Below, piece after piece: positions 1,320 to 45,868 of a stretch of 45,868 bases of DNA; positions within the stretch are counted from its first letter, which is position 1, and every line of letters starts with the position of its first letter. Both the position numbers and the translations under genes were made by a program. The stretch covers positions 1-45,868 of the forward strand of contig CANHQJ010000028.1 in assembly GCA_947462875.1 (NCBI GenBank). Direction: 5' to 3'. This DNA comes from Verrucomicrobiia bacterium (GTDB taxonomy: Bacteria; Verrucomicrobiota; Verrucomicrobiia; Verrucomicrobiales; Akkermansiaceae). Below the pieces are notes generated by a model. It worked only from the letters and a program-made list of their open reading frames with translations, ran no database searches and was not told where the DNA came from.

Positions 1320-1701
1320 GTGTGCCCAGCATGGGCACGTTGTAAATGGGGTTCAAGTCCCCTGTAGGAATACCAAACATGAAAATGAACATACTACTAT
1401 CAGAGGCCAACTCGGAAAGGGTAACCGCTCCGAGGAAGGAAGGCTATGAGAAAATTGCGAGCTGATGGACAAGAACTGCATAGGAGGCCGACATGGAGCG
1501 ATGAGGGGGCACAACACTCCGAAATCATCTGGTATGCCTGGGGAGGTAAATGCAGCAGCAGTGCAATGGAGCAACGTGTCATTACCTGGGGAGATCCACT
1601 CGGAGCAATCCGAGCGGAAGTCAGCAGAGGTCATAGTAGTCGAGGAAACGAGCCGGGGGCAGCATGCCCGTTTAACCAATGATACCGGAGAGACTCACCC
1701 G

Positions 1702-3090
1702 ATGAAGGACCGAACCAATGAGGAGGGGATCAATCCCGCGATGGACAAGCCAACCGAAGACGCCAGACGGCGAGGCGAACTTGAGAACCATGGCGGCGAG
1801 AAGCATAGAGCCCCTCAAGAGCGAACCATGATCGAGCAAATCCTCGAACCGCAAAACCTCTCCGAAGCGTGGAAACGTGTGAAGAGAAACAAAGGTGCTG
1901 CGGGGATCGATGGCATGTCCATCGCAGAGTTTCCCGCCTTTGCGCGGGAGCACTGGCAGAGGATTGCTCAAGCGATCAACGAAGGGAACTACCGCCCCGC
2001 GCCAGTGCGCAGGGTGTTCATTCCCAAACCCGACGGAACAGAGCGTCCGCTAGGCATCCCGACGGTGCTGGATCGCATGATCCAGCAAGCCATCGCACAA
2101 GTGCTGAGTCCGCTTTTCGAAGCAGACTTCAGCGAACACAGTTACGGATACCGTCCCAGTCGATCCGCCCACCAAGCAGTCGCTGAGATGGAATCCGCTT
2201 GGAACGAAGGCCGCCGCCACGCCGTGGAATGCGACCTCAAATCGTTCTTTGACACAGTCAATCACGACCGCCTGATGAACGCGCTCAAAGGAAAAGTCCG
2301 CTGTCCTAAGACACTGAGGCTCATCCAGCGCTATCTAACGGCAGGAGTGGAGCTGCCCGACGGCACCCGCGAGGCCACGCCTCAGGGAGTGCCACAAGGT
2401 GGTCCCTTGTCGCCCCTGTTAGCCAACATCGTCCTCGATCCACTCGATAAAGAACTCGAATCACGCGGACACAAATTCGCGAGATACGCAGACGACTTCA
2501 TTGTGATGGTGAAAAGCGCGAACGCAGCAAAACGGGTGCTGGCATCATTGATACGCTTCTGCGAAGGACGACTGCGACTAACAGTCAACCGAACCAAAAG
2601 CCGCGCCGCGCCACTCAAACAATGTGCCTTTCTGGGCTACCGGATCGACAACAAAGGGAAACTGGCGTGGACGGACAAAGCGCAACATCGTTTCAAACAA
2701 CGAGTGCGTGAAATCACCACACGCAACCGCGGACACAAAGTGGAAACCGTCATCGACGAGCTGAACTTATACATCCGAGGTTGGCTCAACTACTACAAAA
2801 TCAGCTCTACCTACAAGGAGGTGCTGTCATTATCAGTATGGGTCAGGCGAAGAGTGAGGTTGTACTACTGGAAGCAATGGAAACAGCCGCGAACGCGTCG
2901 TCGTCATCTGCTAGCACTGGGAGCTGATCCCAAGAAAGTGCACATGGCGACACGCAGTAGAAAGGGCTACTGGCGGATGAGTCAGAACGAAATTGTGCGT
3001 TATGCGCTGAACAACCGTTGGTTGGAGAAACAAGGAGTTCCTGACATGAGAGCAATCTGGATCGCACTTTACTACCCTGAGCAAGCTTAG
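1702..3090 (+). CDS. ltrA: Group II intron reverse transcriptase/maturase
   Basis: The intron-encoded protein reverse-transcribes the intron RNA during retrohoming and helps it splice. The RT domain is complete: NKGAAGIDGM near the N-terminus, PKPDGTERPLGIPTVLDRM, YGYRPSRSAHQAV, ECDLKSFFDTVNH (first catalytic Asp), TPQGVPQGGPLSPLLANI, and FARYADDFIVM with the catalytic YADD. A maturase (X) domain follows with the conserved LNLYIRGWLNYYKI and a basic tail. There is no HNH endonuclease domain, as in class C introns. The frame is open from 1465, but 1702 is chosen because the known family N-terminus starts shortly before the RT region and a GGAG lies about 12 bases upstream. An ATG at 1741 is the main alternative. 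Confidence 0.9.
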   Translation: MKDRTNEEGINPAMDKPTEDARRRGELENHGGEKHRAPQERTMIEQILEPQNLSEAWKRVKRNKGAAGIDGMSIAEFPAFAREHWQRIAQAINEGNYRPAPVRRVFIPKPDGTERPLGIPTVLDRMIQQAIAQVLSPLFEADFSEHSYGYRPSRSAHQAVAEMESAWNEGRRHAVECDLKSFFDTVNHDRLMNALKGKVRCPKTLRLIQRYLTAGVELPDGTREATPQGVPQGGPLSPLLANIVLDPLDKELESRGHKFARYADDFIVMVKSANAAKRVLASLIRFCEGRLRLTVNRTKSRAAPLKQCAFLGYRIDNKGKLAWTDKAQHRFKQRVREITTRNRGHKVETVIDELNLYIRGWLNYYKISSTYKEVLSLSVWVRRRVRLYYWKQWKQPRTRRRHLLALGADPKKVHMATRSRKGYWRMSQNEIVRYALNNRWLEKQGVPDMRAIWIALYYPEQA

Positions 3091-8321: not shown

Positions 8322-8426
8322 GCTTCGTGGAAACTCCATAGGTTGTTTGAGACGCCTTGACCATGCAATTTGTTCAAAAAGATCAGACCGCTTGAAAAAT
8401 GAGACATTTTCGCACTTTTTCACGAG

Positions 8427-8734
8427 TTATTCACAAGCCTTATGAATGCGTTGCATAGCCCATCATGTGTTGCTTGCTCAGGATACTCAGGTGTGCTGAG
8501 CGGACTGTGAGAAAATTGTGAATAAGTGCGGTCGCGCCAAGCGATCATGAAAAAGGCAAGCAGTCACTAGGGAAATTCGCGATGCTTCGTTTTGCCAAAC
8601 AGTTTGGGCATCCGAAAAACATGCGCGAAATTCCGCTATGTTACGTTTTCGTCGCGTAAAGCGGTCGCCGTAGCGGGCATAAATACTTCGTATGTACATG
8701 AGGCTGTTGTGACTTTTTTCCCAAGTTATTCACA
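8427..8734. promoter_or_regulatory. Cluster of three DnaA-box-like 9-mers in a 535-bp intergenic region
   Basis: TTATTCACA (fits TTATnCACA) occurs at 8427-8435 (plus), 8517-8525 (minus) and 8726-8734 (plus). The surrounding gap, 8322-8856, has no credible gene; a 70-codon minus frame at 8699-8487 has unlikely composition. Transcription diverges from the gap: polX to the SGNH gene run left and icd runs right. A T-rich tract (8713-8719) precedes the third box. This may be a replication origin, or a DnaA-controlled promoter for icd or the left operon. No DUE or dnaA gene is seen, so the role is inferred. Confidence 0.55.
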
Positions 8735-27785: not shown

Positions 27786-30700
27786 ATGAAAAAAACCCAT
27801 ATGCTTCGGAAAAGTACTCCGTACTTGTTAGTCTTGCTATTGCTTGGCTTGATATCCTTGTACCAGTGGCGATCGACGTCGCCTACCAAGACAACGCTTG
27901 GCAGCGAAAGGACCGGTGCCGCGTCAGATGAGAAGACCATCGTCGCTGCGGAAAAGTCGCCGATAGTGGCATCCACGCGACAAGAGATTGCGCCCGAAGC
28001 GCCGCAGGACTTCGGTGCCTGGGCCAGCGCCCCGGTGATCGCGCCTGACTTCGCGAAGATCGACGCGTTCCAGAATTGGCTCCAGCGTTGGCAGAAAGCG
28101 GATGCCGCAGGGCGTGAGGCCCTGGTGGAGGAGGGCGTGAAGCTCGCGGCGGAGCGACGCCTGGAGTTCAAGCGCCTGATCATCAGCGATCCGAAATTGG
28201 CCCTGGAGCTGGCGGTGGCACGCGTGATCCGCCAGGATCTGCCTGCGGAGATCGTGGCCGCTCTGGAGAAACCGGTTTCCGCTACCGGCAATTATGATGT
28301 GCTCATGGCGCGCCCGGCACCGGGTGAGCCGGTACCGACCGAACTGGCGCTGCGCTATTTCGAGGTCGAGGGCATGAGCTACATCGCCCGAGTTTTCGGC
28401 GAGATGACGCCGGTGATGTCGCGCAAACAAATCCCCCTGCGCGGTGTGGCGCTGGACCGCGAATTCGCCGTGGCGGAGAGTCCGTTGCGTGCGTTAGAGC
28501 TGGGCGAGCGCGTCGCGGCCGGCACGAAAGTGGAGGAAGTCTGCCCCGTCTCCGGCAAGGAAACCGAGGCGGTGGCGACAGGTGAGCCCGTGACACAGGA
28601 AACTCCGGTGGTGGAAGTGGGCGAGCGCGTCATCGCTCTCTGCAATGGCACGCACGTGGAGGTGCTGGATGAGAAGTATCGCACGCTGGTCCAGGCCGCT
28701 GGTCCGGGTGGCGCTTCGTTTTTCATCGATGGCTATCCCGGAACTTCCTCGCGCGCCATCGGCAATCTTCGCTGCCTCTACATCCGCGGCACCTATCCCG
28801 ATCGCTTGGAGCAACTCAACACCGAAGACCAGGCCGCTGCCGACATGGCGAACACCGCGCGCTTTTTCTCGGAGAACTCGTTTGGCAAATGCTCGCTCAC
28901 GACCACCATCACGCCGATGGTGGTGTTGCCGCATACCTTCACCTGGTATACCACCAAGGACACGGAAGTGAACGGTCTCGGTCTGTTGCAAACACATGCG
29001 CGCATCGAGGCGCGGCGTCTGGGGTATGACTCGACGCAGTACGACTGCATCATTCTCCGCATCAATGGTCTGCGTAGCGGTGCATCGTGGGGTGGTGGCG
29101 ACAGTGTTTGGCTCGGCTGGGGTGGCATGGATGTGATCAATCACGAGGTGGGTCACTCCCTCGGCCTGAATCATGCGAATTTCTGGCAAACCAGCGACGG
29201 CACGGCCTACGGCAACGGTGCCAATCAGGAATACGGCAACTCGTTTGACGTGATGGGCGGCGGCGGTGGCTTCGGCGCCCATTACAACACGGTTTCGAAA
29301 CGTCAGGTCGGCTGGCTGCCTAACAACTACGTGCATTTCCCGAGGGAAAACGGCGTCTATCGGATTCATGCGTATGACCAGCCGCGCCTTGAGGAAAACA
29401 AACGGTACGGGCTGACCGTCGCCAAGGACAGCATCCGCTCTTACAACATCGAATACCATCCCGAGGGTGGCAGCACTTGGCAGAACAGCGCGCTGGTGAT
29501 CTACAGTGGCATGGGCAGCAATGCCGGTCATTTGCTCGATACCACGCCCGGTTCCAGCGGCGGCAAGGCCGATGGCGGGATACTGGTCGGACGCACGTAT
29601 TCGGATCTGGAGGCGGACATGCATTTCACGGTCCTGGCGAAAAACGACACTTCTCCGCCATCGCTCGATATCGCCTACATGCGCGGGCCGTTTCCCGGCA
29701 ACCAGCCGCCAACCTGCACGCTGGTGGCCAGCGCCACGACTCTGGCGGTGGGACAATCGGTGACTCTCACCGCCAATGCCGCCGATGCCAATGGCGATGA
29801 GTTATCGTACTTCTGGGAGTTCGATGACGGCACCACCGCGGCAAACAGCGCGGTGATCACGCGTTCCTTTTCCGCCGCCACGCAGATCACGGCGATGGTG
29901 ACGGTATCCGACCGCAAAGGCGGGACCGTGCGTCGCCACGTGGTGCTGAATGTGGGCAGTCACGGCAGACAAACCGTTTCCGGAGTGGTCACGCTCAATG
30001 GCCAGCCCCTGCGCGATGTGCGTGTGGCCACCGGCAGCAAGTTTTGTTTCACCGCGGAAGATGGCAGCTATGCGCTCGCCGGCCTGAGCACCGGATCGCA
30101 GACCTTCACTGCCACGCTCAATGGGTATACTTTCACGCCTGATTTCGTCAATCCGCTGACAGTGGTCTCCGGTGGCAATACCGCCAACTGGACCGCCGCG
30201 GCTTCGATGTCATTTGTCACTCTGGTGCGCAATGCGGATGTCGTGGAAAACGGCGCGGCGGGTTCGTTCACCCTGACGCGCACGGGCGATACCACGGCCG
30301 ACATGGTGGTGCGTGTCTCGCCCCAGGGAGGAACGGCGGCAAAAGGAACCGACTACAATTTTTCGCCTGACTTTGTCACCGACGGCTCGTACCGCATCTT
30401 TACCATTCCTGCCGGTCAGTCATCGCTCACCGTTTCGGTGAATCCGATCAATGACACCAGCGCGGAAGGTCCGGAAACCATCACGCTGCAATTGGCTTCC
30501 AACGGCAATTACCTCTCGGGAAGCGCCAATGCGATGACGATGAGCGTCGCCGATGACGACACCGCCTTGCCGCAAGTGGCGCTGCGGATGACCAATCCGT
30601 ACGCTCTGGAATCTCCCGCCGAGAGCGGCACCTTGTTGCTGACGCGCACGGGGTCGACGGCATCCTCTCTCAATGTGGTCCTGACCTGGACGGGCACCGC

Positions 30701-33700
30701 TACCAATGGCACCGACTACGCGAGCCTGCCCACCAGTGCCGTGATTCCTGCGGGACAAAGCTCCGTGACTCTCGCGGTCAATCCTCTCAACGATTCGCTG
30801 ATCGAAGGACCGGAGGATGCGATCGCCACCATCGTCAGCAATGCGGCCTATGTGCGCGATGCCTCTGCCTTGACGGGAACGGTGACGATTACCGATGACG
30901 ACACGCCGGTGGTCAGCCTCACCCTCATTGATGCCTCCGCGAGCGAAGCGGGTCCCGATTCCGGTGTGTTTCTTGTCACCCGCACCGGTTCCACGGCGGC
31001 ACCGTTGAAAGTGTATTATGGCATGTCAGGCACCGCCTATCACGGCACCGACTACGCCGCGCTGACCGGCGAGGTGACCATACCCGCAGGCGCGGCATCG
31101 GCACCGATTGTCATCACTCCCTATGCCGATGATTTGGGTGAAACCGCGGAATCCGCCACGATTTCCCTCACGACGTTCAACAACACCTACAGCATGGCGG
31201 AAAACCATCGTTTTTCTGTAACGATCGAAGATGCGAATGATGTGCCGGTGGTGGCGGTGCGCACGGGAACGGTGGGGGTGGAAGCCGGGGCCAATGCGAC
31301 CGTGATTTTCCGCACCATGGGATCCGCGACGGGTTCGGTGGTGGTGAACTACACGGTATCGGGCACGGCGACCGCCGGTCTGGATTACACCGCTCTCTCC
31401 GGCACGGTCACCATGCCGGCAGCCGGCCCCAGCGATGTGACGGTGACCATCCCGGTGCTCAATGATGTTTCGCCGGAGCCCACGGAAACGCTGTTTGTGA
31501 AAATCACTCCGGCGGCGGGCTATCGGGTCTACAATGACGGATCCGCCACCGCATTCATCCGCGACAATGACAGCGGTGATCGTCTGATGGTCTCCACCTA
31601 CAATGACACGCCTGCGGAAGGCGGCGGCACGGGACGTTTTTACATTCATCGCGCCGGTGCCACCACGAGCGACATGGTGGTGAACTACACCTTGTCCGGA
31701 ACGGCAACTTCAGGAGTGGATTACACCGGGCTCACGGGCACGGCGACCATTCTTGCCGGCGAAGTGGGCGTGAATGTTCCGTTCACGGTCAGTGAGGATA
31801 CGCTGGCCGAGGGCACGGAAACGGTGACCCTGCAACTCGTGGAAGCGGCGGGATATGGCTTGGATCTGCCTTCGTTTGCCACCTTTGAAATCGGCGACAA
31901 CGACGCGATGCCCATCACCGTGGGCTTCCAGAGCGCGACATCGACGACCACCGAGCAGCCTACGGCTTTGGGGGAATATCGCGACATCCCCGTCGTTCTC
32001 TCCGCGGCATCGGCTTCACCCGTCACGGTGCGCTATGCCTCCGGTGGCGGCATTGCCACCGGTGATGATGTGGACTGGGCCTTTGTGGATGCGGCTGCGG
32101 GGAATGCGATCATCCCCCAGGGCGTGTTGACCTTTGCACCCGGAGTGACCACGCAGAACATTCGCATTCGCGTGAAAAATGACAACATGATCGAGCCGAT
32201 CGAATCGTTCATCATGGAATTGCGCGCGCCGTCCGGAGCCGGACTGACGAATGGCGTGAGCCGCCATACGATGATGGTGGGAGACACCAGCGTGTCAGGC
32301 CTGGTGCTGGAAGAGCGTTGGTCCGGCAGCACGGCCTACAGCAGCCAGGCATGGTCGAGTTCCGCGCCATCGTTCACCGGCTACCTCACATCGTTCACTC
32401 CTTCGCAAAATGTCGCGGACAACTATTCGCGCCGTCTTACCGGGCAAATCGTGGCTCCGGTATCCGGAGCCTACCGTTTCTGGATCGCTTCGGATGACGA
32501 TAGCCGGCTTTTCCTCAGCACGACGTCCAGTGCGGCGAACAAGGTGCAAATCGCCAGTCTGGCCGGATGGACCTCCTATCAGAACTGGGATGCGAACACG
32601 AGCCAGCGCTCGGCTCTCATCAATCTGGTGGCCGGTCAGTCCTACTACATGGAGGTCCAGCACCTCGAAGGCGGGGGCGGCGATCACGTTTCCGTGGCAT
32701 GGGAAGGGCCGGGCATCACGCGTCAGGCGATTCCGGCACAGTCTCCGGAAAGCCAGGCCACACGCTATGTCCGTCTGGTGCAGAGCGCCATCACCCGCCG
32801 TGAATCGGATGGCGCGGATACGCAACTGGTGGCGATTCTCGACAGGCCGGCTGGATCGTCCTCCGTATCGGTCGAGTACGCCGTCTCCGGCACCGCGACC
32901 CCGGGCCTTGACTACACCTTGCCGGCAGGGCCGCTGGTCTTCGCGCCGGGTGAACAGATGAAAACGATTCCTCTTGTTTTGTTGACGGATGCCGTGGCGG
33001 AAATGCCCGAGTCTGTCGTGCTGACGCTGACCAACTCCTCAGGCATGGTGGCGAGCAACCCGACGAGTGCGACGATTACCTTGATCGATGACAATGCCCC
33101 CGTGGTGGGCGCGCAAGTGCTCACCGCGCGGTCCAACATGACGGGCGGCACGGTTCTGGGCACGGTCACCGCCTCCGTGGCATCGGGTCGCAGCATCAGT
33201 TCGTGGTCCATCGTGGCCGGAAACGCGGGCGGTCTGTTTTCCGTTAACGCGGCGGGTGTGATCTCCCTTGTCAATCCCGCCGGTCTCCCCAACCCCGGAT
33301 CGCGCGGGTTGTTGTTGCGTGCGGTGGACAATCTGGGGGCCAGTGGTGATGGCCTGATCACGATCGACTGCAATCCTCCGACGGTGGTGGGTGTGCGTGA
33401 GCAGCGCTGGAGCGGTGCCACGGCTTACAACAATCAGAGCTGGACAGGTGCGACAAATTACACCGGAGTCCTCTCCACCTACACGACGGCGCAAAATGTC
33501 GCCGACAGCTATTCGCGCCGCCTGACCGGTTATCTGCGTCCGGCGGTGACGGGACAGTATACCTTCTGGATCGCCTCGGATGATGCCAGTCGCTTGTTCC
33601 TCAGCACGGATACATCGGAGGCGAACAAGGTGCTCATCGCGAGCTTGGCTGGCTGGACCAACTTCCAGACCTGGGATGCGAATGCCTCGCAAAAATCCGT

Positions 33701-36700
33701 GTCCATTCCCTTGGTGGCGGGACAGGTGTATTGGCTGGAAGTGCAGCATCAGGAAGGGGGCGGTGGCGACCACGTCTCGGTCGCTTGGTCGGGCCCCGGC
33801 ATCAGCCGCGAGCCGATTCCGGCCAGCGCCGTTTACACGCCCGGTTCACCCGCCGCGAGTCCGGTTCCGGCGATGGTGGCACTTACCTCACCGCTGGCAG
33901 GATCCACCTTCACGGCGGGAGAAAGCATCGCGCTGGCCGCGGATGTGCTCGCCGGTTCCGAGCCGGTGCAGGCGGTGGAATACTATCAAGGTAGTACTTT
34001 GATCGCGTCGGACAACACGGCACCGTATGCCGTTGCCTGGAACACCGCGCCTGTGGGCTCGCATGTTCTCACGGCGAGAGTGGTCACCAGCGGCGGTGCG
34101 GTATCGTCCGGGCCTGTAACGGTTCAAGTGACCTCCAGCAATATGGCACCCGTTTTCACCAGCAATCCTGTGAACGCCGGTGCCACCGCCCCGGGCCAAC
34201 CCTTCGCCGGCACACTGGCGGGAACGGCCACGGATGCGAACGCGGGTGACGTGCTGACTTTCAGCAAAGTCTCTGGTCCCGCCTGGTTGAACGTGGCGGC
34301 GAATGGCGCACTGTCCGGCACTCCTTCCTCCGCGGATGTGGGCCCCAATGGATTTACCGTGCGCGTGGAGGATCAACTCGGGGCCTCTTCCACGGCGACC
34401 CTGATCATTGATGTCGTTCCGCAGGAGCTGGTATGGATTCAGCCCGCCGGTGGCTCCTGGAACCAATCCACCCATTGGTGGGGCGGATACATCGCCAATG
34501 GCATCGGAGCCACGGCCTTGTTCGATACCCTGGATCTCACCTCCTCTGCCACGGTGACTCTCGATGGCAACATCACTCTCGGTCACCTGCGCATGGCGGA
34601 TACCACGCCTTCGCATCAGTGGACGCTGGCATCCGGAAGCGGCGGTGTGCTCACCCTGGATGTGCCCACGGGGCAGCCTACCATCGTGACCACGAACGGG
34701 ACGACCACCATCAGCGCGGCGATCGCAGGAAACAAAGGTCTGGTCAAGAGCGGTCTCGGTGAGCTAGTGCTCACGAATGCCAATACCTATGGCGGCGTGA
34801 CTGTGGTGAATGCCGGAACATTGACGGTGCAACAAGCGGGTGGCTCGGCCACGGGCACGAGCAGTGTGGCGGTCGCAGCAGGCGCTACCCTGGGCGGCAC
34901 GGGTGCCATCGGTGGCGCGGTATCGGTCAGCGGCACCTTGTCCGCGGGCGGTGCTGCCGTTGGCTCATTGAGCACGGGGGCCCTGACGCTGAATGCCTCG
35001 CCGACACTGGTGTGGCAAGTCGCCGACTGGGCGGGCACGGCCGGCGTGGCGAGTGATCTGGTGCTGGCACCGGGCTTGCAACTCAGCGGACTGACGCAGG
35101 CCACGATCGTCCTGCAAGCGTCGAATCTGGTGAACTTCACCAATGCGAGCAAGGCCTTTCCTTTGATCCGCACGACATCAGGCGTCACCGGTTTCTCGGC
35201 GGCGCAGTTTGTCGTGGATGCTTCCGCCTTGCCTCAGGCGACAGGCACTTGGTCGGTAGCGGTGATGGGCGATGATCTGGTGTTGCTCTACACGCGATCG
35301 AACGTAGCTCCTGCTTTCACGAGTGATCCTGTCGTGGCGGCATCGGCTGCGGAAGATTCGAGTTATCTCACGAATCTCGCCACTGCGGTGAACGATCCCG
35401 ATCTCGGCGAAGTCCTGACCTTTGAAAAACTGAGCGGTCCCGCCTGGCTTCAAGTGCAGGCGAACGGCACGGCTTCCGGCGTGCCGGGCAATGCGGATGT
35501 CGGCTGGAACGAGTGGAGCGTGCGCGTCACGGATTCCTTCCTCACTTCTGCGACGGCCACACTGCGGGTCCTGGTCACTAACGTCAACGACGCGCCTGTA
35601 TTCAGCGGCAATCCGATGGATTTCGGCACGGTATCGCAAGGTTCGGCCATCGCTGCCAGCCTGTCGGGTACGGCGATCGATATCGATGCGGGCGATGTTC
35701 TCACGTTCAGCAAGGTCTCCGGCCCATCATGGCTGGTCGTGGCCGGAAATGGCACGCTCTCGGGAACTCCGGGCAATGGCGACGTGGGCGCGAATGCCTT
35801 TGTCGTGCGCGTCACCGACGCTGCCGGTGCGTTCCAGGATGCGACACTCACGCTCACCGTGCTCAATGTGAATGATGCCCCTGCATTCCTCGCCACTCCC
35901 ATCGCGGGCGGCACGGTCAAGGCGCTGGGAAGTTTCAGCGGCACCTTGAGCGGAACGGCGGCGGATATCGACGTGGGTGATGTCATTTCGTATAGCAAAG
36001 TTTCCGGACCGGCCTGGCTGAACATCACGGCCAATGGCGCGATGAGCGGATCGCCCGCAGCAGGAGATGTGGGCACGAATGTCTTTGTGGTGCGCGTGAC
36101 GGATGTGGCGGGTGCTGCGGCCGAGGCGAATCTTTCGATCAACGTGACTCCTGCGAATGTGGCTCCGACGTTCCTTTCCAATCCGATCACAGGCGCCTCT
36201 GCGGTGCGGGACAATGCCTACGTGGCGACGCTGGCGGGCAGCGCTGCGGATGCGAATGCGGGTGACTCACTTTCTTTCAGCAAGGTGAGCGGACCGGCGT
36301 GGCTGACGGTGGCTGCGAATGGCGCACTGGGAGGCACTCCTACGATCAGTCATCTGGGTGCGAATTCCTTTGTCGTGCAAGTCAGCGATGGCGACGGGGC
36401 GTCCGCGCAAGCGACTCTCAATATTCAGGTCGTCAGCCTGCCCCTGCCGTGGGTGGGAGCAAACATCGGCAGCGGAAATCTCGCGGGCAGCGCCTCCTTC
36501 CTGAACGGGGCCTACACGCTTTCCGGTTCCGGCGTACTCACGGGCTCTTCCGATGGCGGCTACTATGTTTATCAGAGTTTGATCGGCGATGGCCAAATAT
36601 CGGCGCGCATCGATCAAATGCAAAACACGGGCACGAGCTCGCGGGTGGGCGTGATGATTCGCAATACGTTGGCGGACAACGCGCAATACACCGCCATGAC

Positions 36701-36986
36701 TGCCACCGGTTCTGGTTCGTATCGCTGGTCCCGCCGCACCGCCGCTGGGGCGAAAAGCACGGTGTCCAATCATGGCAGCGGCACCTTGCCGAATCTGTGG
36801 GTGAGGGTGACGCGGGTGGGCAATGTGTTCACTTCCTTCACCAGCACCAACGGCACGACATGGACCAGTGTGGGCTCGGTGACGATGACGCTGAACTCGA
36901 ATTGTTTCATCGGCCTCTACGTCGCCAGCGGATCGAGAACCACGCTGAACACTTCGCGCTTTGTGAACTTGAGTGTGACGCCATGA
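27786..36986 (+). CDS. Giant secreted metzincin-like protein with Calx-beta, PA14 and Ig-like repeats (3066 aa)
   Basis: N-terminal signal anchor (YLLVLLLLGLISLY), then a propeptide-like region and a metallopeptidase domain with HEVGHSLGLNH (His453, Glu454, His457, Gly460, His463), the zinc motif of metzincins, in a gametolysin-like context. After it: a PKD-like domain (about 640-720), a carboxypeptidase regulatory-like domain (about 735-812), six or so Calx-beta domains (about 813-1500 and 1660-1770, TGTDYA, DDTP), two PA14-like domains (about 1506-1655 and 1868-2015), a cadherin-like segment between them, an Ig-like domain, a putative-Ig repeat series (VSGPAWL... GTP), an autotransporter-associated beta-strand region (about 2215-2500), four more Ig repeats, and a C-terminal lectin-like beta domain. 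Probably a surface or secreted carbohydrate-binding adhesin/protease. No PEP-CTERM or sorting tail is seen. Confidence 0.85.
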   Translation: MKKTHMLRKSTPYLLVLLLLGLISLYQWRSTSPTKTTLGSERTGAASDEKTIVAAEKSPIVASTRQEIAPEAPQDFGAWASAPVIAPDFAKIDAFQNWLQRWQKADAAGREALVEEGVKLAAERRLEFKRLIISDPKLALELAVARVIRQDLPAEIVAALEKPVSATGNYDVLMARPAPGEPVPTELALRYFEVEGMSYIARVFGEMTPVMSRKQIPLRGVALDREFAVAESPLRALELGERVAAGTKVEEVCPVSGKETEAVATGEPVTQETPVVEVGERVIALCNGTHVEVLDEKYRTLVQAAGPGGASFFIDGYPGTSSRAIGNLRCLYIRGTYPDRLEQLNTEDQAAADMANTARFFSENSFGKCSLTTTITPMVVLPHTFTWYTTKDTEVNGLGLLQTHARIEARRLGYDSTQYDCIILRINGLRSGASWGGGDSVWLGWGGMDVINHEVGHSLGLNHANFWQTSDGTAYGNGANQEYGNSFDVMGGGGGFGAHYNTVSKRQVGWLPNNYVHFPRENGVYRIHAYDQPRLEENKRYGLTVAKDSIRSYNIEYHPEGGSTWQNSALVIYSGMGSNAGHLLDTTPGSSGGKADGGILVGRTYSDLEADMHFTVLAKNDTSPPSLDIAYMRGPFPGNQPPTCTLVASATTLAVGQSVTLTANAADANGDELSYFWEFDDGTTAANSAVITRSFSAATQITAMVTVSDRKGGTVRRHVVLNVGSHGRQTVSGVVTLNGQPLRDVRVATGSKFCFTAEDGSYALAGLSTGSQTFTATLNGYTFTPDFVNPLTVVSGGNTANWTAAASMSFVTLVRNADVVENGAAGSFTLTRTGDTTADMVVRVSPQGGTAAKGTDYNFSPDFVTDGSYRIFTIPAGQSSLTVSVNPINDTSAEGPETITLQLASNGNYLSGSANAMTMSVADDDTALPQVALRMTNPYALESPAESGTLLLTRTGSTASSLNVVLTWTGTATNGTDYASLPTSAVIPAGQSSVTLAVNPLNDSLIEGPEDAIATIVSNAAYVRDASALTGTVTITDDDTPVVSLTLIDASASEAGPDSGVFLVTRTGSTAAPLKVYYGMSGTAYHGTDYAALTGEVTIPAGAASAPIVITPYADDLGETAESATISLTTFNNTYSMAENHRFSVTIEDANDVPVVAVRTGTVGVEAGANATVIFRTMGSATGSVVVNYTVSGTATAGLDYTALSGTVTMPAAGPSDVTVTIPVLNDVSPEPTETLFVKITPAAGYRVYNDGSATAFIRDNDSGDRLMVSTYNDTPAEGGGTGRFYIHRAGATTSDMVVNYTLSGTATSGVDYTGLTGTATILAGEVGVNVPFTVSEDTLAEGTETVTLQLVEAAGYGLDLPSFATFEIGDNDAMPITVGFQSATSTTTEQPTALGEYRDIPVVLSAASASPVTVRYASGGGIATGDDVDWAFVDAAAGNAIIPQGVLTFAPGVTTQNIRIRVKNDNMIEPIESFIMELRAPSGAGLTNGVSRHTMMVGDTSVSGLVLEERWSGSTAYSSQAWSSSAPSFTGYLTSFTPSQNVADNYSRRLTGQIVAPVSGAYRFWIASDDDSRLFLSTTSSAANKVQIASLAGWTSYQNWDANTSQRSALINLVAGQSYYMEVQHLEGGGGDHVSVAWEGPGITRQAIPAQSPESQATRYVRLVQSAITRRESDGADTQLVAILDRPAGSSSVSVEYAVSGTATPGLDYTLPAGPLVFAPGEQMKTIPLVLLTDAVAEMPESVVLTLTNSSGMVASNPTSATITLIDDNAPVVGAQVLTARSNMTGGTVLGTVTASVASGRSISSWSIVAGNAGGLFSVNAAGVISLVNPAGLPNPGSRGLLLRAVDNLGASGDGLITIDCNPPTVVGVREQRWSGATAYNNQSWTGATNYTGVLSTYTTAQNVADSYSRRLTGYLRPAVTGQYTFWIASDDASRLFLSTDTSEANKVLIASLAGWTNFQTWDANASQKSVSIPLVAGQVYWLEVQHQEGGGGDHVSVAWSGPGISREPIPASAVYTPGSPAASPVPAMVALTSPLAGSTFTAGESIALAADVLAGSEPVQAVEYYQGSTLIASDNTAPYAVAWNTAPVGSHVLTARVVTSGGAVSSGPVTVQVTSSNMAPVFTSNPVNAGATAPGQPFAGTLAGTATDANAGDVLTFSKVSGPAWLNVAANGALSGTPSSADVGPNGFTVRVEDQLGASSTATLIIDVVPQELVWIQPAGGSWNQSTHWWGGYIANGIGATALFDTLDLTSSATVTLDGNITLGHLRMADTTPSHQWTLASGSGGVLTLDVPTGQPTIVTTNGTTTISAAIAGNKGLVKSGLGELVLTNANTYGGVTVVNAGTLTVQQAGGSATGTSSVAVAAGATLGGTGAIGGAVSVSGTLSAGGAAVGSLSTGALTLNASPTLVWQVADWAGTAGVASDLVLAPGLQLSGLTQATIVLQASNLVNFTNASKAFPLIRTTSGVTGFSAAQFVVDASALPQATGTWSVAVMGDDLVLLYTRSNVAPAFTSDPVVAASAAEDSSYLTNLATAVNDPDLGEVLTFEKLSGPAWLQVQANGTASGVPGNADVGWNEWSVRVTDSFLTSATATLRVLVTNVNDAPVFSGNPMDFGTVSQGSAIAASLSGTAIDIDAGDVLTFSKVSGPSWLVVAGNGTLSGTPGNGDVGANAFVVRVTDAAGAFQDATLTLTVLNVNDAPAFLATPIAGGTVKALGSFSGTLSGTAADIDVGDVISYSKVSGPAWLNITANGAMSGSPAAGDVGTNVFVVRVTDVAGAAAEANLSINVTPANVAPTFLSNPITGASAVRDNAYVATLAGSAADANAGDSLSFSKVSGPAWLTVAANGALGGTPTISHLGANSFVVQVSDGDGASAQATLNIQVVSLPLPWVGANIGSGNLAGSASFLNGAYTLSGSGVLTGSSDGGYYVYQSLIGDGQISARIDQMQNTGTSSRVGVMIRNTLADNAQYTAMTATGSGSYRWSRRTAAGAKSTVSNHGSGTLPNLWVRVTRVGNVFTSFTSTNGTTWTSVGSVTMTLNSNCFIGLYVASGSRTTLNTSRFVNLSVTP

Positions 36987-40559: not shown

Positions 40560-40676
40560 GGGGGGAGGGGGAATAGTGTGACAGAACGCTTACGTTCTTC
40601 TGCCCGTTGAAGAGTCCGTTCCTGAGTTTTGGATTTTGCGGGCCGTACATCTGATCAATTCTGAGCGCCGCAAAGG

Positions 40677-40788
40677 AAAAAGCCGACCTGTTGCAACAGA
40701 TCGGCTTTTCTTAAGAAACGCTTTTGCTAACGGTGTGTCCTATACGGGACAGTTAATCGCTTTGCGCCTCTAACTTTGTCTTGATTCC
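40677..40788 (-). ncRNA. tracrRNA of the type II-C CRISPR system
   Basis: Read on the minus strand, the predicted RNA starts GGAATCAAGACAAAG, which is complementary to CTTTGCCTTGATTCC of the CRISPR repeat at 14 of 15 positions; upstream-overlapping TGCCGG can pair with CCGGCA further along the repeat. Then follow a hairpin (GTTA...TAAC, 40774-40752), a second (TGTCC-CGTATA-GGACA, 40751-40736) and a terminator stem GCCGA.CTGT/ACAG.TCGGC ending in five Us (40706-40677). A good promoter precedes it. About 112 nt, typical for type II tracrRNA. It guides crRNA processing by RNase III and loads Cas9. The terminator is symmetrical enough to work on both strands. Confidence 0.85.
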
Positions 40789-40794
40789 GGCACG

Positions 40795-40823
40795 AAAATA
40801 AGAATAGTTAGGCCATTGGTCAA
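40795..40823 (-). promoter_or_regulatory. Promoter of the tracrRNA
   Basis: On the minus strand TTGACC (40823-40818) and TATTTT (40800-40795) are separated by exactly 17 bases. The expected start point, seven bases on, is the G at 40788, the first base of the anti-repeat. The promoter lies in the 5' region of cas9, so the two are divergently transcribed. Confidence 0.75.
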
Positions 40824-40835
40824 CACAATAATACG

Positions 40836-43800
40836 ATGAATCAAAAAAATTTACTGGTGTCATACGATATAGGCTATGCGTCAATCGGGTGGAGTGTGAT
40901 GGAATCCGATGGGAATGCCGGGTCTGATCCTGGCATACTCGGCTGCGGTGTCGTGACTTTTCCCACCGACGACTGTCTGGCTTCAAGCCGCCGAGCACTC
41001 AGACGAACGCGAAGGAACATCAGGGCGACTCGCATGAGAATCGAAAGATTGAAGAAGTTCTTTGTGTCCATTGGGTTTTTAAGTCGTGCAGATCTTGATA
41101 CCGAAGGTCATCCTGCACCATTTTTCTTGGCGGCAAGAGCACTATTGGAAAAGCAAAAGCTGAGTAAGTTAGAACTTTGGCATGTCATTCGCTGGTATGC
41201 GCACAATCGAGGATATGATGGTAATTCCCGTTGGGCTAATGAAGTGGAGGAGGACGAGGACGAAAATGAAGATACCGAAAAATTGGCGAATGCGTTTAAT
41301 CTCATGACAAAGTTCCAGAAGCGTAGTATGGCGGAAACCGTTTGCGCTGTTCTGGAATTGGATACGGATCAGAAAAAAGCTGCTTTTACTGAGAAAAATG
41401 CAGCCTACAAAACGCAGAATGCGGCATTCCCTCGCAAAAATGTCCTGGAAGAAGTAGGCCGTATTCTCTCTCTTCACTCGGATCTTATTACGCCAGAGCA
41501 AGTCTCTTTCTTGATGAAGGACGATTTAAGCGACACACAAAGGATCAGTCTTAAAAATGCTGACATCAAACTACCAAAGCGCTACTCTGGGGGACTGCTT
41601 TTTGGGCAATTGGTCCCGCGTTTTGACAATCGGATCATAGCGCGCTGCCCGATCACTTGGGCTCGGTTATTTGATGAGCAGATCACCCTTGGCAAAGATG
41701 AAGATACGGCAAAGCACGTCGCAGACCGCGATTCTAAAGTGCCAGCCAAAAACACTGTTGAATTTTACCGGTATCGCTGGGCGCGACTGCTGGCAAACAT
41801 CAAAGCAGATGGCGCACCGCTAAACAGGGAAGCCCGGATTTCTCTTACGCAACTGGCAGAGGCCACAGGAGGTTTGAGCAAAAAAGACATCGAAAAGTAT
41901 CTCAGGGAAACCTACGGGAAAAGTGTAAGCACGAATCTTGAGGCATTTTTCAATATTCATCCCGATAGCGAAGAAGCGCTGGTGCTGAATCCTGCGCTAA
42001 AATTTGCTTACAGCAGTGCGCAAGGCATGCAACACTTTTGGCCGATATTGCCAGATAACCTGAAAAAACTCAGTATGTCCCGTTGGCAACAGGGCAAATC
42101 CATTACGCCCCGTGAATGGAAAGAGCGCATGTTGCAGAAGGGATTGGATACACGGCCTCTCGAAGCTGCCATCAAGACTGTTGATCAGGCGCAAAAACCT
42201 AGGAAGGGTAAGCCAGTCAAATCTTGTTATCTGAAAGCCATTAAACCCAAAATTCCTACAGGCCGGGCTCCCTATGCGCGACCCGTGCTGAAACAAGTGT
42301 ATGATGAGGTTTTGGCTGGTTTTGATCCTACCAAACCTGCGGGCAAAACATCTGCCTCTGAGGGCGAAAATAAACCAAGTGACGGAGTATTGTATGCTCT
42401 TGCTAATCCGAAGTCGCGCGTTCGCGAGCTTGAGTCACAGCGTTCGCTCGATTCGCTCACCAACAATCATCTTGTCCGGCATAGATTGCTAATTCTGGAA
42501 AGACTTACCCAAGATATCGTGAAGCAGTATGCCGACAATCATGCGGAAAATGTTTCACAGGTGATCGTGGAAGTAGCGCGTGAACTGAAGGAGTTTTCCG
42601 GTAGCACGGCCAAAGAAATTGCTAGCGAGTTGAATGGCCGACTCAAAAACTTCAAAGAGGCGGTAAAGTATTTGCAGAAAAATGGCATCAGCGATGATTT
42701 GATCAATGGCAGTCTAATCCGCAAATGCCGTATCGCTATGGATCTGGATTGGCATTGTCCATTCACCGGTCAAAAATATGACGTGCAGGATTTAAACAGG
42801 ATGGAACGGGAACATATCATTCCCTACGCATCGCGCGCAACGAATGCCCTGCATGCGCTTGTCCTTACCTTGCCGGAGGTAAATCGCATGAAGGGTAAGC
42901 GAACAGCCCGCCAGTTCATTATCGATCATGAAGGCAAGGAAGTGCAAGGCAGCAATCTAACGATAATGACGTTGAAGCAATACGACGCCTTCGTTGATAA
43001 ATTGAGCACCAAGGGTCATCCGGATGACACCAAGAGGATGAAAGCGCGCAAGGCTTTGCTGGCTACCACTGAATTTGATGAGAAAGAACAAGGATTCACT
43101 GAAGGCCATCTTACGCAGTCATCTCATCTGATCAAACTCGCGTCGCGCCAGTTGAAACCGCAACTGCCGGCCGCCAGGATCGATCACATTCCAGGTATCG
43201 TAAATGCGGAAATTCGCAAAGCATGGAGACTTGCCGGAACGCTCGCTCTCGCGTGCCCCGATGTGCTTGATGAAAGGGGAGAAGTGAGGCCCAAGGACGA
43301 AATCCGCGGCATTACCCATCTCCATCACGCCTTGGACGCAGCCGTTCTTGGACTTTGCGCGCACTACATACCACTGTCACAGCACGGGCAAGATGTGAAA
43401 GGGAAAATTTGGCAAGCCATACTCAAAAGAAACAAAACGGATGATGAGAAGAAATTCTTGCTCTCTCTTCGCTGCTTCAAGCCTTTTCTGCGGGATCGTG
43501 GGCAAACGCAAGAAACAGACGTGCGCTTGATCGATGTCCCCACCGAAGTGAAAAATACCTTGTCCCAAAAACTGGCGGAATGTCGAGTAGTTCAGCATCT
43601 TCCGGCAGATCGAAGCGGTGCTAAAACCGAATTGACGACTTGGCGAGTAATTGACGTGAAGGGAGAAGGTGACGCGGCAGAGGTGACGCTAAGGCAGAAT
43701 TCTACGACGGTTGATAATGGTAAACGCACGAAGATGGCAAAGCAAACGACTGAAAAAGCAGGAAAATTATTGGGGCTGCGACCTCCGAATGGCGAAGGCA

Positions 43801-44198
43801 AGTTATCGCGTATCAAGGGAGCGATTGTGATTGCAAGTAACTATGGTGTGGCTCTCGATCCTGAACCTTGCATCATTCCATTTCACAAAGTTCATTGGCG
43901 TGTTTATGATCGCAGTAATCCTGACTCGGTCCTTAGCCGCAATGGGGGTGAATTACCACGCATTCTCCGCAATGGAATGTTAATCAAAGTCCGAGGCGGC
44001 ACATGGAAGGGGTTATGGAAGATTAAGTCTGTAAAATCAACAGAGGCTTACGGATTGTCTGTGGATTTATCTAAACCCGAGAGCCTGAAGTTAGGGAAAG
44101 GAAATGCACCTATTACAAAACTTCTCCGCGATGGGCTTATAATTATCGGCAGCAGCTATGTAGGCACGACACTATCCGATTTTAAAGATAAAATTTAG
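40836..44198 (+). CDS. cas9: CRISPR-associated endonuclease Cas9, type II-C
   Basis: RNA-guided double-strand DNA nuclease of 1120 residues, the compact size of II-C enzymes. RuvC-I: VSYDIGYASIGWSV with catalytic Asp11. Arg-rich bridge helix at about 52-76 (RRALRRTRRNIRATRMRIER). RuvC-II: VIVEVARELKE with Glu579. HNH: CPFTGQKYDVQDL...REHIIPYASR with His660, and EVNRMKG with Asn683. RuvC-III: HLHHALDAAVLG with His831 and Asp834. The C-terminal PAM-interacting region starts around 950. An acidic run (EVEEDEDENEDTEK, 136-149) lies in the recognition lobe. All catalytic residues are present, so it should be active. The gene is AT-richer than the core genome. Stop and cas1 start are 13 bases apart. 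No clear Shine-Dalgarno. Confidence 0.97.
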   Translation: MNQKNLLVSYDIGYASIGWSVMESDGNAGSDPGILGCGVVTFPTDDCLASSRRALRRTRRNIRATRMRIERLKKFFVSIGFLSRADLDTEGHPAPFFLAARALLEKQKLSKLELWHVIRWYAHNRGYDGNSRWANEVEEDEDENEDTEKLANAFNLMTKFQKRSMAETVCAVLELDTDQKKAAFTEKNAAYKTQNAAFPRKNVLEEVGRILSLHSDLITPEQVSFLMKDDLSDTQRISLKNADIKLPKRYSGGLLFGQLVPRFDNRIIARCPITWARLFDEQITLGKDEDTAKHVADRDSKVPAKNTVEFYRYRWARLLANIKADGAPLNREARISLTQLAEATGGLSKKDIEKYLRETYGKSVSTNLEAFFNIHPDSEEALVLNPALKFAYSSAQGMQHFWPILPDNLKKLSMSRWQQGKSITPREWKERMLQKGLDTRPLEAAIKTVDQAQKPRKGKPVKSCYLKAIKPKIPTGRAPYARPVLKQVYDEVLAGFDPTKPAGKTSASEGENKPSDGVLYALANPKSRVRELESQRSLDSLTNNHLVRHRLLILERLTQDIVKQYADNHAENVSQVIVEVARELKEFSGSTAKEIASELNGRLKNFKEAVKYLQKNGISDDLINGSLIRKCRIAMDLDWHCPFTGQKYDVQDLNRMEREHIIPYASRATNALHALVLTLPEVNRMKGKRTARQFIIDHEGKEVQGSNLTIMTLKQYDAFVDKLSTKGHPDDTKRMKARKALLATTEFDEKEQGFTEGHLTQSSHLIKLASRQLKPQLPAARIDHIPGIVNAEIRKAWRLAGTLALACPDVLDERGEVRPKDEIRGITHLHHALDAAVLGLCAHYIPLSQHGQDVKGKIWQAILKRNKTDDEKKFLLSLRCFKPFLRDRGQTQETDVRLIDVPTEVKNTLSQKLAECRVVQHLPADRSGAKTELTTWRVIDVKGEGDAAEVTLRQNSTTVDNGKRTKMAKQTTEKAGKLLGLRPPNGEGKLSRIKGAIVIASNYGVALDPEPCIIPFHKVHWRVYDRSNPDSVLSRNGGELPRILRNGMLIKVRGGTWKGLWKIKSVKSTEAYGLSVDLSKPESLKLGKGNAPITKLLRDGLIIIGSSYVGTTLSDFKDKI

Positions 44199-44211: not shown

Positions 44212-45138
44212 ATGTCTTTTCACATCATCAGTATTGATGCTCCAGAATGCAGTCTAAGTTGTAAGGATGGTCAATTTCTATGCTCTACCAGTGAAGGCGC
44301 CAACCGTATTCCGTTAGAAGATGTAGCAGCCATCATAATAACTTCTTTCTCTGCCAGCATTCATTCAAATCTTTTGCTTGAAGCAGCAAAGCAAGGTGTG
44401 GCGTTGGTCTTGTGCGAAGCATTCAAACCTGCGTCGCTTATGCTACCGGCCAATCGTGCCACAGATACGCTATTGACCAGATCTCAAGCATATCTAAAAT
44501 CAGCTATCACCAAACGGCTTTGGCAAAAGACTGTAGACGCAAAATGCTCCAATCAGCTTCATTTCATGCGCAGTGTGGCACCGGATCATCCTGATTTGCC
44601 ACGTTTGGAGAAGGCGGCAACGCGTGTCTCCACCGCACAAGAGGCTGATACAGCACGTTGGTATTGGAAAATTTTTGGTGAGCGGATTGCAGAAACGGAT
44701 GACTTTCGTCGTGGACGAACCGAGGGTGGCATAAATCCTCTGCTGAACTACGGGTATGCGATTCTGCTATCCACGATTCTTCAAAAACTTTTTGCTCTCG
44801 GTCTCGATCCGACTTTTGGCATTTTTCATGCGATTCGCGAAAAGTCGACACCCCTAGCCTACGATTTGATGGAGCCATTTCGTCCTTGTGTCGATGCGCG
44901 TGTGGCACAGTGGATTCGGCAGTTTCCCGAGGAAAAAGACTGGCTAGTCACCAAAGAGTTCCGCCGTTGGATCACAGGGTTTACCCTGGAGTCTGTGGAT
45001 TACCTAGATTTGACCTTGGATTTACGCGGCTGCATGGAAGGCGTCGTTCGCTCCTTTCGACAAGCCATACTCAGTGAGCAATCAGGCCCCTACAAACCAT
45101 GGAAAACATCAACTACAAAATGGGGTGGATCATGGTAG
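44212..45138 (+). CDS. cas1: CRISPR integrase Cas1, type II
   Basis: Integrates new spacers with Cas2. The short N-terminal beta domain (HIISIDAPECSLSCKDGQFL, RIPLEDVAAIIITS) is followed by the helical catalytic domain with metal ligands Glu144 (AQEADTARWYW), His206 (PTFGIFHAIR) and Glu221 (AYDLMEPFRPCVD). 308 residues, usual for type II Cas1. It begins 13 bp after cas9 and its last 40 bp overlap cas2, so the three genes form one operon. No csn2 or cas4 accompanies them, which defines subtype II-C. Confidence 0.96.
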   Translation: MSFHIISIDAPECSLSCKDGQFLCSTSEGANRIPLEDVAAIIITSFSASIHSNLLLEAAKQGVALVLCEAFKPASLMLPANRATDTLLTRSQAYLKSAITKRLWQKTVDAKCSNQLHFMRSVAPDHPDLPRLEKAATRVSTAQEADTARWYWKIFGERIAETDDFRRGRTEGGINPLLNYGYAILLSTILQKLFALGLDPTFGIFHAIREKSTPLAYDLMEPFRPCVDARVAQWIRQFPEEKDWLVTKEFRRWITGFTLESVDYLDLTLDLRGCMEGVVRSFRQAILSEQSGPYKPWKTSTTKWGGSW

Positions 45139-45434
45139 CATTTGACCTTCCGGTTCAAACGAAAGAGCAGAGGAAATCCGCCACAAAATTCCGCGATTGG
45201 CTGTTGGACGATGGCTATCAAATGATGCAGTTCAGCGTCTATATCAGGCCCTGTGTAACCTACGCGAGAATGGAGACGCACATCCGTCGTGTCAAAACAG
45301 CCATACCCGAGGAAGGAGAAGTCCGCGTGATTTTTATCACCAAGGCCCAGTGGGAACGATCCTATATCTTGCGTGGTCGGCCTTCTAGCCATGTTCCTCC
45401 GGAAAGTTTGCCTGAACAAATTCTACTTTGGTGA
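45099..45434 (+). CDS. cas2: CRISPR adaptation protein Cas2, type II
   Basis: The structural partner of Cas1 in spacer acquisition. A ferredoxin-like fold is visible: IMVAFDLPVQTKEQRKSATK with the conserved Asp after the first strand, FRDWLLDDGYQMMQFSVYIR, and VRVIFITKAQWERSYIL. 111 residues if started at 45099; the ATG at 45120 (MGWIMVAFDLP) is equally plausible and nearer the usual Cas2 N-terminus. It overlaps cas1 by up to 40 bp and stops 89 bp before the first CRISPR repeat. Confidence 0.95.
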   Translation: MENINYKMGWIMVAFDLPVQTKEQRKSATKFRDWLLDDGYQMMQFSVYIRPCVTYARMETHIRRVKTAIPEEGEVRVIFITKAQWERSYILRGRPSSHVPPESLPEQILLW

Positions 45435-45511: not shown

Positions 45512-45538
45512 CCGGCAGTGTCTATTAAACACTGCCGG
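45512..45538. repeat. Truncated inverted repeat copy at the cas-side edge of the array
   Basis: CCGGCAGTGT (45512-45521) is the exact complement of ACACTGCCGG inside the first CRISPR repeat (45529-45538), with a 7-base loop. The upstream bases TATTCCGGCAGTGT resemble the repeat read backwards, minus part of its length. In a minus-strand array transcript this makes a strong GC hairpin right at the end of the array; there is no U tract, so whether it terminates or processes the RNA is unclear. Confidence 0.7.
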
Positions 45539-45757
45539 GAATTGGAATCAAGGCAAAGCGCAAGAACACTTATTGTGGACTGGGCATCTATTAAACACTG
45601 CCGGGAATTGGAATCAAGGCAAAGCTAGCACTGCAACCGTCCCACGCATCGCGCAATTAAACACTGCCGGGAATTGGAATCAAGGCAAAGCATGAAAACC
45701 ATCCTACTCATCCTCACCGCCATTAAACACTGCCGGGAATTGGAATCAAGGCAAAGC
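45524..45757 (-). CRISPR. Type II-C CRISPR array, 4 identical repeats, 3 spacers
   Basis: Four identical 36-bp repeats start at 45524, 45590, 45656 and 45722 (plus-strand repeat begins ATTAAACACTGCCGGGAATT and ends GGAATCAAGGCAAAGC). The three spacers (45560-45589, 45626-45655, 45692-45721) are exactly 30 bp. Read on the minus strand the repeat begins GCTTTGCC and ends GTGTTTAAT, resembling Neisseria II-C repeats, which also end in AAT, and it pairs with the tracrRNA anti-repeat. The direction of transcription is therefore taken as minus. The array is short, and none of the repeats is degenerate. Confidence 0.97.
45722..45757 (-). promoter_or_regulatory. Promoter embedded in each CRISPR repeat
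   Basis: On the minus strand every repeat contains TTGATT (repeat positions 9-14) and TTTAAT (31-36) with 16 bases between, a good sigma-70 pair whose start point would fall about seven bases into the next spacer. The same element lies at 45524-45559, 45590-45625 and 45656-45691. Neisseria II-C arrays are known to drive each crRNA from a promoter inside the repeat. Confidence 0.65.
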
Positions 45758-45784
45758 AAAAACGGAGCATGGGAAGCATGGCGT

Positions 45785-45868
45785 GTTGCCTCATTGAAGC
45801 GGACACCATAAATATTTCCATGAGTGACTGGGAGAGTGCCGTTGCCTCATAAATAGAGACACCATGGC
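45785..45868. repeat. Second, different repeated motif next to the array
   Basis: GTTGCCTCAT-7 bases-GACACCAT occurs at 45785-45809 and again at 45841-45865, a period of 56 bp. The outer 10 and 8 bases are identical, while the central seven differ (TGAAGCG versus AAATAGA). The second copy reaches the window edge. It shares no sequence with the cas9-associated repeat. It may be the degenerate end of another CRISPR array or another short repeat family. Confidence 0.5.

What the first reader, a model, noticed from the sequence alone, without database searches (positions are those of the whole stretch)
40677..40823. Complete tracrRNA gene divergent from cas9
Promoter (TTGACC-17-TATTTT), start G, 14/15 anti-repeat match, two internal hairpins and a U-tract terminator all line up on the minus strand, and fix both guide architecture and the direction of crRNA transcription for this Cas9. 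The single A-C mismatch and the 5-7 base crRNA bulge are system-specific features.
Basis: partly seen in the sequence, partly recalled or inferred. Interest (0 to 1): 0.8.

Follow-up and report, generated by a model that had tools for sequence, protein, structure and literature searches.

The report
tracrRNA gene beside a Verrucomicrobial Cas9
The marked stretch is very probably a real, evolutionarily conserved gene for the small RNA that a bacterial Cas9 immune nuclease needs to hold its guide; that kind of gene is well known, but related loci also carry an unusual hairpin at the end of the guide array where new memories are added.

Summary
Window 40788-40677 (minus strand, 112 nt) is a type II-C tracrRNA gene, divergent from an apparently intact cas9-cas1-cas2 operon with an array of 36-nt repeats. 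In 35 of 39 loci of the same Cas9 clade an equivalent gene lies upstream of cas9 on the opposite strand. Its body folds into a three-tier hairpin supported by compensatory changes, ends in a terminator hairpin, and mostly has -35/-10 boxes in fixed register. A covariance model finds it in 40 of 386 genomes of the order: 37 of the 40 with a strong match to this Cas9, plus three without a detected Cas9.

Corrections. The C-A mismatch is not peculiar to this genome: a break at that point occurs in all 27 loci that could be scored. The "5-7 base crRNA bulge" has no clear comparative support.

[quoted passage not shown] My searches found no report of this for II-C. Verdict: new member of a known kind, with an intriguing array-end variant.

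The parts
40677..40788 (-). tracrRNA, predicted 112-nt transcript
   Evidence: anti-repeat in 35 of 39 fetched cas9-clade loci; covariance model hit 90.9 bits (the window is one of the 34 sequences the model was built from)
40818..40823 (-). -35 box TTGACC
40795..40800 (-). -10 box TATTTT, 17-nt spacing
40773..40788 (-). anti-repeat, pairs with repeat bases 16-1 with one C-A break opposite repeat base 7
40764..40768 (-). outer stem, 5' arm (GGCGC)
   Evidence: 5 pairs, 100% of cells paired in 34 sequences, 4 of 5 with changes on both sides
40717..40721 (-). outer stem, 3' arm (GCGTT)
40758..40761 (-). inner stem, 5' arm (AGCG)
   Evidence: 76.5% of cells paired in the alignment; not in the window's own minimum-energy fold
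40729..40732 (-). inner stem, 3' arm (CGTT)
40747..40751 (-). apical hairpin, 5' arm (TGTCC)
   Evidence: 83.5% of cells paired
40736..40740 (-). apical hairpin, 3' arm (GGACA)
40677..40708 (-). terminator hairpin plus U-tract
   Evidence: 15-bp stem with loop GCAA; not listed by the simple scan
40836..44198 (+). cas9, 1120 aa; D11, E579, H660, N683, H830/H831, D834 invariant in the 14 ORFs compared
44212..45138 (+). cas1
   Evidence: TIGR03639, 155.6 bits
45099..45434 (+). cas2
   Evidence: TIGR01573
45512..45523 (-). leader arm, inverted partial copy of the repeat's 3' half
   Evidence: 12-bp hairpin with the adjacent repeat
45524..45757 (-). CRISPR array: four 36-nt repeats and three 30-nt spacers, crRNA sense on minus; ten further repeats on contig C24
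45783..45868 (+). end of an insertion sequence that appears to split the fourth spacer

Best explanation
The stretch is the tracrRNA gene of a type II-C CRISPR-Cas9 system. RNA polymerase starts at or next to 40788 and stops at the terminator near 40677. Bases 1-16 pair with the first 16 bases of the repeat in each crRNA, giving a 6-bp lower stem, a one-base break and a 9-bp upper stem. The rest folds into one three-tier hairpin, the Cas9-binding scaffold, and a terminator hairpin. crRNAs are made on the minus strand, from the cas-distal side toward cas2. Shown from sequence: location, conservation, pairing, covariation, promoter register, terminator hairpin. Inferred: transcription, start site, Cas9 binding and DNA cleavage.
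For: An anti-repeat is found upstream of cas9 on the opposite strand in 35 of 39 loci; of the other 4, two are contigs that begin inside cas9, one has its tracrRNA on another contig, and one has a longer insert that the pattern missed. In 34 aligned sequences the 14-pair structure is formed in 87.5% of cells against 24-39% when slid, with 11 pairs changed on both sides. Repeat and anti-repeat change together: GCTTTG...GATTCC with GGAATC...CAAAG, GTTTTG...GAATCC with GGATTC...CAAAA. Promoter register. The model finds it in 37 of 40 genomes with a strong match to this Cas9 and in 3 others of 386.
Against: No transcript data. The window's promoter is not exceptional on its own, and L043 and L052 score only 5 and 6 of 12. 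No Rfam family matched it at the gathering score. In one search the number of further pair types is not above shuffles (113 of 500 reach it). The inner stem is absent from the window's own minimum-energy fold. 34 of the 40 model hits are sequences it was built from; 6 are not. Three genomes carry the gene without detected Cas9.
Confidence: 0.95

Rival explanations
1. The tracrRNA reads from the plus strand and the crRNAs from the plus strand of the array.
For: The gap also holds a weak plus-strand likeness to the repeat's other half, noticed by eye and not scored.
Against: The plus strand of 40700-40830 folds no better than shuffles (z 0.14). Promoter, covariation and terminator hairpin fit the minus strand. 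The repeat-embedded promoter-like pair scores 9 on the crRNA sense and 6 on the other strand.
Confidence: 0.02
2. It is a tracrRNA gene of a locus that is no longer active; the array is already cut by an insertion sequence.
For: An insertion sequence appears to split a spacer; none of the 9 other genomes of the genus searched has this cas9 or tracrRNA.
Against: cas9 is open with its catalytic motifs kept; cas1 and cas2 are over their family cut-offs; the tracrRNA keeps every element; repeats on both sides of the insertion look identical but for the outermost one.
Confidence: 0.05
3. The transcript starts a few bases further up (40793-40791), so that UGCC pairs with GGCA of the repeat across a 7-base crRNA bulge.
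For: A 4-pair run is possible in the window, and runs of 4 or more in 14 of 27 loci, against about 9 expected from shuffles.
Against: The mean longest run, 3.5, is close to that with other species' repeats (3.3) and shuffles (3.3); the -10 box places the start at the first base of the anti-repeat in the window, and in 27 of 35 loci to within a base.
Confidence: 0.15

Closest known systems
type II-C CRISPR-Cas9 systems (Neisseria, Campylobacter kind)
   Same: cas9-cas1-cas2 only; array opposite in direction to cas genes; acquisition at the last repeat; promoters in repeats (PMC6737040 and PMC8092290: passages; PMC12080349: introduction, results, discussion)
   Different: Cas9 only distantly related to solved ones (best PDB sequence hit 9ar4, E 7.2e-15); the break in the window's repeat:anti-repeat duplex is one base
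leader-repeat hairpins of II-A and type VI arrays (PMC13187072: abstract, introduction and passages read)
   Same: leader pairs with the repeat where new spacers enter
   Different: [quoted passage not shown] here the leader lies at the 3' end, and the hairpin mainly uses the half of the last repeat that tracrRNA does not bind
II-C upstream terminators and hairpins (PMC12080349: introduction, results and discussion read, methods not)
   Same: hairpins next to II-C arrays
   Different: those lie upstream of the oldest repeat; the parts read do not treat a hairpin with the newest repeat

Membership tests
tracrRNA | anti-repeat complementary to the CRISPR repeat, next to cas9 or the array | tested here: met
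   15 of 16 pairs counting one G-U; 47 bases lie between it and the cas9 start codon
tracrRNA | own promoter and terminator | tested here: met
   sequence prediction; promoter register conserved across loci, terminator hairpin by folding
tracrRNA | structured body after the anti-repeat, under selection as RNA | tested here: met
   covariation
tracrRNA | expressed, binds Cas9 and is required for cleavage | not testable with these tools
   needs RNA and protein experiments
type II-C CRISPR-Cas | cas9, cas1 and cas2 without csn2 or cas4 in the operon | tested here: met
   the three genes run directly to the array; upstream neighbour is phnA/yjdM
type II-C CRISPR-Cas | acquisition end at the crRNA-sense 3' end; degenerate repeat at the other end | tested here: met
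   outermost cas-distal repeat altered in C24, L039 and L042; L040 and L046 show no altered repeat there. Indirect: acquisition itself was not observed
type II-C CRISPR-Cas | promoter inside each repeat | tested here: inconclusive
   TTGATT-16-TTTAAT, 9 of 12, same register in 25 of 26 distinct repeats, but the -35 part is also fixed by pairing and many -10 parts are weak
Cas9d (NF049971) | score over the curated cut-off | tested here: not met
   113 bits against 375

The most novel reading that the evidence does not exclude
In this clade of type II-C systems the pre-crRNA ends in a hairpin shared between the array and its leader. The leader beside cas2 encodes an inverted copy of the 3' half of the repeat (window 45512-45523), which pairs with the leader-adjacent, newest repeat across a 3- to 7-base loop at the leader-repeat junction and mostly spares the half that tracrRNA binds. 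Each spacer acquisition remakes the leader-adjacent repeat and so remakes the hairpin, so the newest spacer's crRNA always sits next to a structured 3' end that stops or protects the transcript.
Probability: 0.5. Interest if true: 0.55.

Novelty: new member of a known kind. Interest (0 to 1): 0.35.

Why it matters
It gives a complete, testable guide architecture for a compact (1120 aa) Cas9 only distantly related to those with solved structures: a 112-nt tracrRNA, a 16-base duplex with a one-base break, crRNA sense and transcription direction. The set of related genes shows which parts are constrained. The array-end hairpin raises an open question in II-C biology: how the transcript is ended, or the newest guide favoured, when the acquisition end is the 3' end.

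Tried and rejected
Rfam found no known family at the site at its gathering score; weak sub-threshold hits to RefA9 and SpF66 cover the terminator hairpin. Plus-strand fold rejected. Is the inverted leader copy general to II-C in the phylum? Of 40 other type II Cas1 loci, 37 had an array in the stretch. On the cas-proximal side three beat the best of their 40 shuffles: L159 (12 against 9; related repeat core), L172 (10 against 7) and L144 (9 against 8), both with unrelated repeats; L158 (related core) and L179 equal theirs at 9; the rest do not stand out. PAM: 7 of the 13 spacers were scanned in viral contigs, each by one exact 18-20 base part. One gave a convincing protospacer (28 of 30, 3' flank CTTGTTCT), one gave three partial, chance-like matches, five none; too few for a PAM. 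One spacer was tested for self-targeting: no other site within 3 mismatches. Distant Cas9 loci L096-L102 were fetched as outgroups and only looked over for arrays. Rows dropped: L094 left out of alignment A1 (its 3' part diverges); 8 of 35 tracrRNA loci have no array in the stretch and are not in the pairing count; only 14 Cas9 ORFs passed the crude filter.

Literature searches for prior reports; open-licence papers only.

Full report
What is there. The window is contig C28 of a 3.95-Mb draft genome. The two named records with related Cas9 genes are an Akkermansiaceae and a Verrucomicrobiales bacterium; the genomes bear only unnamed family labels, so the name Verrucomicrobial is an inference. 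cas9 (40836-44198), cas1 (44212-45138) and cas2 (45099-45434) form a plus-strand operon followed by an array of 36-nt repeats and 30-nt spacers. Cas9 passes the TIGR01865 cut-off (221 against 100 bits) and not that of Cas9d. D11, E579, H660, N683, H830/H831 and D834 are invariant in the 14 ORFs compared (that these are the RuvC and HNH catalytic positions is recalled).

The tracrRNA gene. On the minus strand a -35 box (40823-40818), 17 bases, a -10 box (40800-40795), the anti-repeat (40788-40773) and a terminator hairpin with U-tract (40708-40677) follow each other. The predicted RNA of 112 nt runs from 40788 to 40677. The stretch 40670-40793 folds more strongly than all 200 shuffles. The anti-repeat is the best in the window outside the array, 14.5 of 16 against 13.0.

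Conservation. I fetched 38 further loci of the same Cas9 clade. An anti-repeat upstream of cas9 on the opposite strand is present in 35 of 39 loci. Of the other 4, L083 has its tracrRNA on another contig and L087 has a longer insert in the anti-repeat; L091 and L092 begin inside cas9. 34 sequences were aligned. A 14-pair structure of three nested helices forms in 87.5% of cells, against 24-39% when the 3' partners are slid; 11 of 14 pairs show changes on both sides (1 of 500 shuffles reaches this), and 0 of 500 shuffles reach the observed paired percentage or covariation score; the number of further pair types is not above shuffles (113 of 500). The outer helix is paired in every cell. RNAalifold on its own predicts that helix and the terminator stem, with 9 of 10 pairs changed on both sides in some sequence. 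In the window's own minimum-energy fold the inner helix is replaced by a two-pair alternative.

Promoter and start. Scanning the 60 bases upstream in each of 35 loci for boxes ending 3-9 bases before GAATC gives a mean of 8.6 of 12 against 6.2 in shuffles (standard error 0.19); 19 of 35 score 9 or more, against 2.2% of shuffles. Several reach 10-12 (for example TTGACA-17-TATAAT in L090). In 27 of 35 the best -10 box ends 6-7 bases before the anti-repeat's first base, so the RNA should begin there. The window itself scores 9; L043 scores 5 and L052 6, so not every locus has a recognisable promoter.

The duplex and its break. In the 27 loci with both repeat and tracrRNA, the duplex covers repeat bases 1-16. 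All 27 have a break between the lower and upper stem: C-A opposite base 7 in 22 loci, C-U at base 8 in one (L044), and one bulged A in four of one family (L045, L078, L079, L080). The loci are related, so this is fewer independent events than 27. L185 and L187 carry extra bases at the same point (read by eye, not in the count). Other departures: a mismatch at base 16 in five loci (L038, L068-L071) and at base 5 in L082. Pairing does not continue past base 16 in register. Allowing any offset, the longest run between the 8 bases upstream and the rest of the repeat averages 3.5, against 3.3 for other species' repeats and shuffles; 14 of 27 loci have a run of 4 or more, against 33% of shuffles.

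Co-occurrence. A covariance model built from the alignment finds matches in 40 of 386 genomes of the order. In a draw of the same size, 40 genomes have a strong match to this Cas9 (E 2.5e-18 or better) and 8 have weak, distant ones. 37 of the 40 have the tracrRNA; the three without are a C-terminal Cas9 fragment (G195) and two contigs that begin inside cas9 (G346, G350). None of the 8 distant ones has it. Three genomes have it without detected Cas9: in G317 cas1 and cas2 directly follow, as if cas9 had been deleted; G048 and G327 show none of the three cas genes in the stretch fetched. 34 of the 40 hits were in the training set; six were not. None of the nine other genomes of the same genus in the draw has the Cas9 or the RNA, so the system is patchy.

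Direction and array end. The tracrRNA fixes the crRNA sense to minus, toward cas2. Published II-C arrays as a rule run opposite to cas genes (PMC6737040, passages), are transcribed toward the leader end (PMC8092290, passages) and acquire at the last repeat (PMC12080349, introduction). Altered outermost repeats at the cas-distal end fit this (C24, L039, L042); L040 and L046 show none. The best promoter-like pair inside the repeat falls in one register (position 9, spacing 16, -10 at the repeat's end) in 25 of 26 distinct repeats; mean 7.4 against 6.0 in shuffles; the window's repeat scores 9. The -35 part overlaps bases fixed by tracrRNA pairing and the repeats are related, so this is only suggestive.

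The leader hairpin. Beside cas2 the leader holds an inverted copy of the repeat's 3' half. 29 loci have both array and leader. In 22 the leader and its own repeat form 9-18 contiguous pairs with a loop of 3-7 bases at the junction; folding gain -9.1 to -25.8 kcal/mol with the own leader, against locus means of -1.3 to -4.8 with other leaders, although single leaders of near-identical systems reach -18.7. By local alignment 20 of the 22 beat the best of 100 shuffles; L077 and L090 do not. Since repeats differ strongly in that half between species, the match is covariation. By family label, 22 of 23 loci of f1 and f2 have it and 0 of 6 of f4 reach 9 contiguous pairs, though L079 has 8. One f4 locus (L081) has instead a strong hairpin wholly inside the leader (-27.8 kcal/mol); the leaders of L045, L080 and L093 also fold strongly alone (-20 to -23), L079 -16, L078 -9.1. 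In the window the hairpin is 12 bp (45538-45527 with 45523-45512). It is followed only by a modest U-rich stretch, so it is not a textbook terminator. Among 37 other type II arrays of the phylum, three beat their shuffles on that side, one of them (L159) with a related repeat core. Possible roles: ending or protecting the transcript next to the newest spacer (favoured), ending the cas mRNA on the other strand, or a DNA role in Cas1-Cas2 docking. Searches that could have shown a prior report did not (listings, plus the parts of PMC12080349 and PMC13187072 named above).

The array is interrupted. After the fourth repeat, 25 bases of spacer are followed by the end of an insertion sequence whose left end has 12 full matches in the genome, the window included, mostly near contig ends. 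Contig C24 ends in the other side of such an element, and the two spacer parts join to exactly 30 bases with a 5-base target duplication ATGGC; that the two contigs are neighbours is inferred. A complete copy on C18 is about 1.4 kb and encodes a 422-aa protein with an integrase core (PF00665). The full array would then have 14 repeats.

Verdict. A genuine, complete and conserved tracrRNA gene of a type II-C system: a new member of a known kind. The array-end hairpin is the part that could be new.

Noticed in passing
window 45783-45868 and contig C24 end (L009 about 8400-8528): An insertion sequence (about 1.4 kb, rve integrase core, copy on C18) appears to split a CRISPR spacer with a 5-base target duplication; its copies lie at many contig ends.
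   Followed up: partly
window 45512-45523 with 45527-45538; 22 of 29 loci: Leader-encoded inverted copy of the repeat's 3' half, co-varying with each species' repeat, can form a hairpin with the newest repeat.
   Followed up: partly
L185, L184, L186 (G317, G048, G327): tracrRNA genes without detected cas9; in G317 cas1 and cas2 follow directly, as if cas9 had been lost.
   Followed up: partly
L044 5830-5850: A lone repeat-like fragment between the tracrRNA and cas9, in crRNA sense on the cas9 strand, possibly a solitary crRNA-like gene.
   Followed up: no
L106 4871-4900 (IMGVR_UViG_3300037189_004340): Viral contig with a 28 of 30 match to a C24 spacer; 3' flank CTTGTTCT, a single PAM hint.
   Followed up: partly
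window 1415-1580: Group II intron D1-D4-3 match (RF02001, 92 bits) that overlaps the start of a 541-aa ORF (1465-3090).
   Followed up: no
window 27786-36986: A 3066-aa ORF with internal DNA repeats at 285-base spacing in its C-terminal part.
   Followed up: no
L078 6612-8128: A 1.5-kb gap after the cas-proximal repeat in the G251 array, perhaps another insertion.
   Followed up: no
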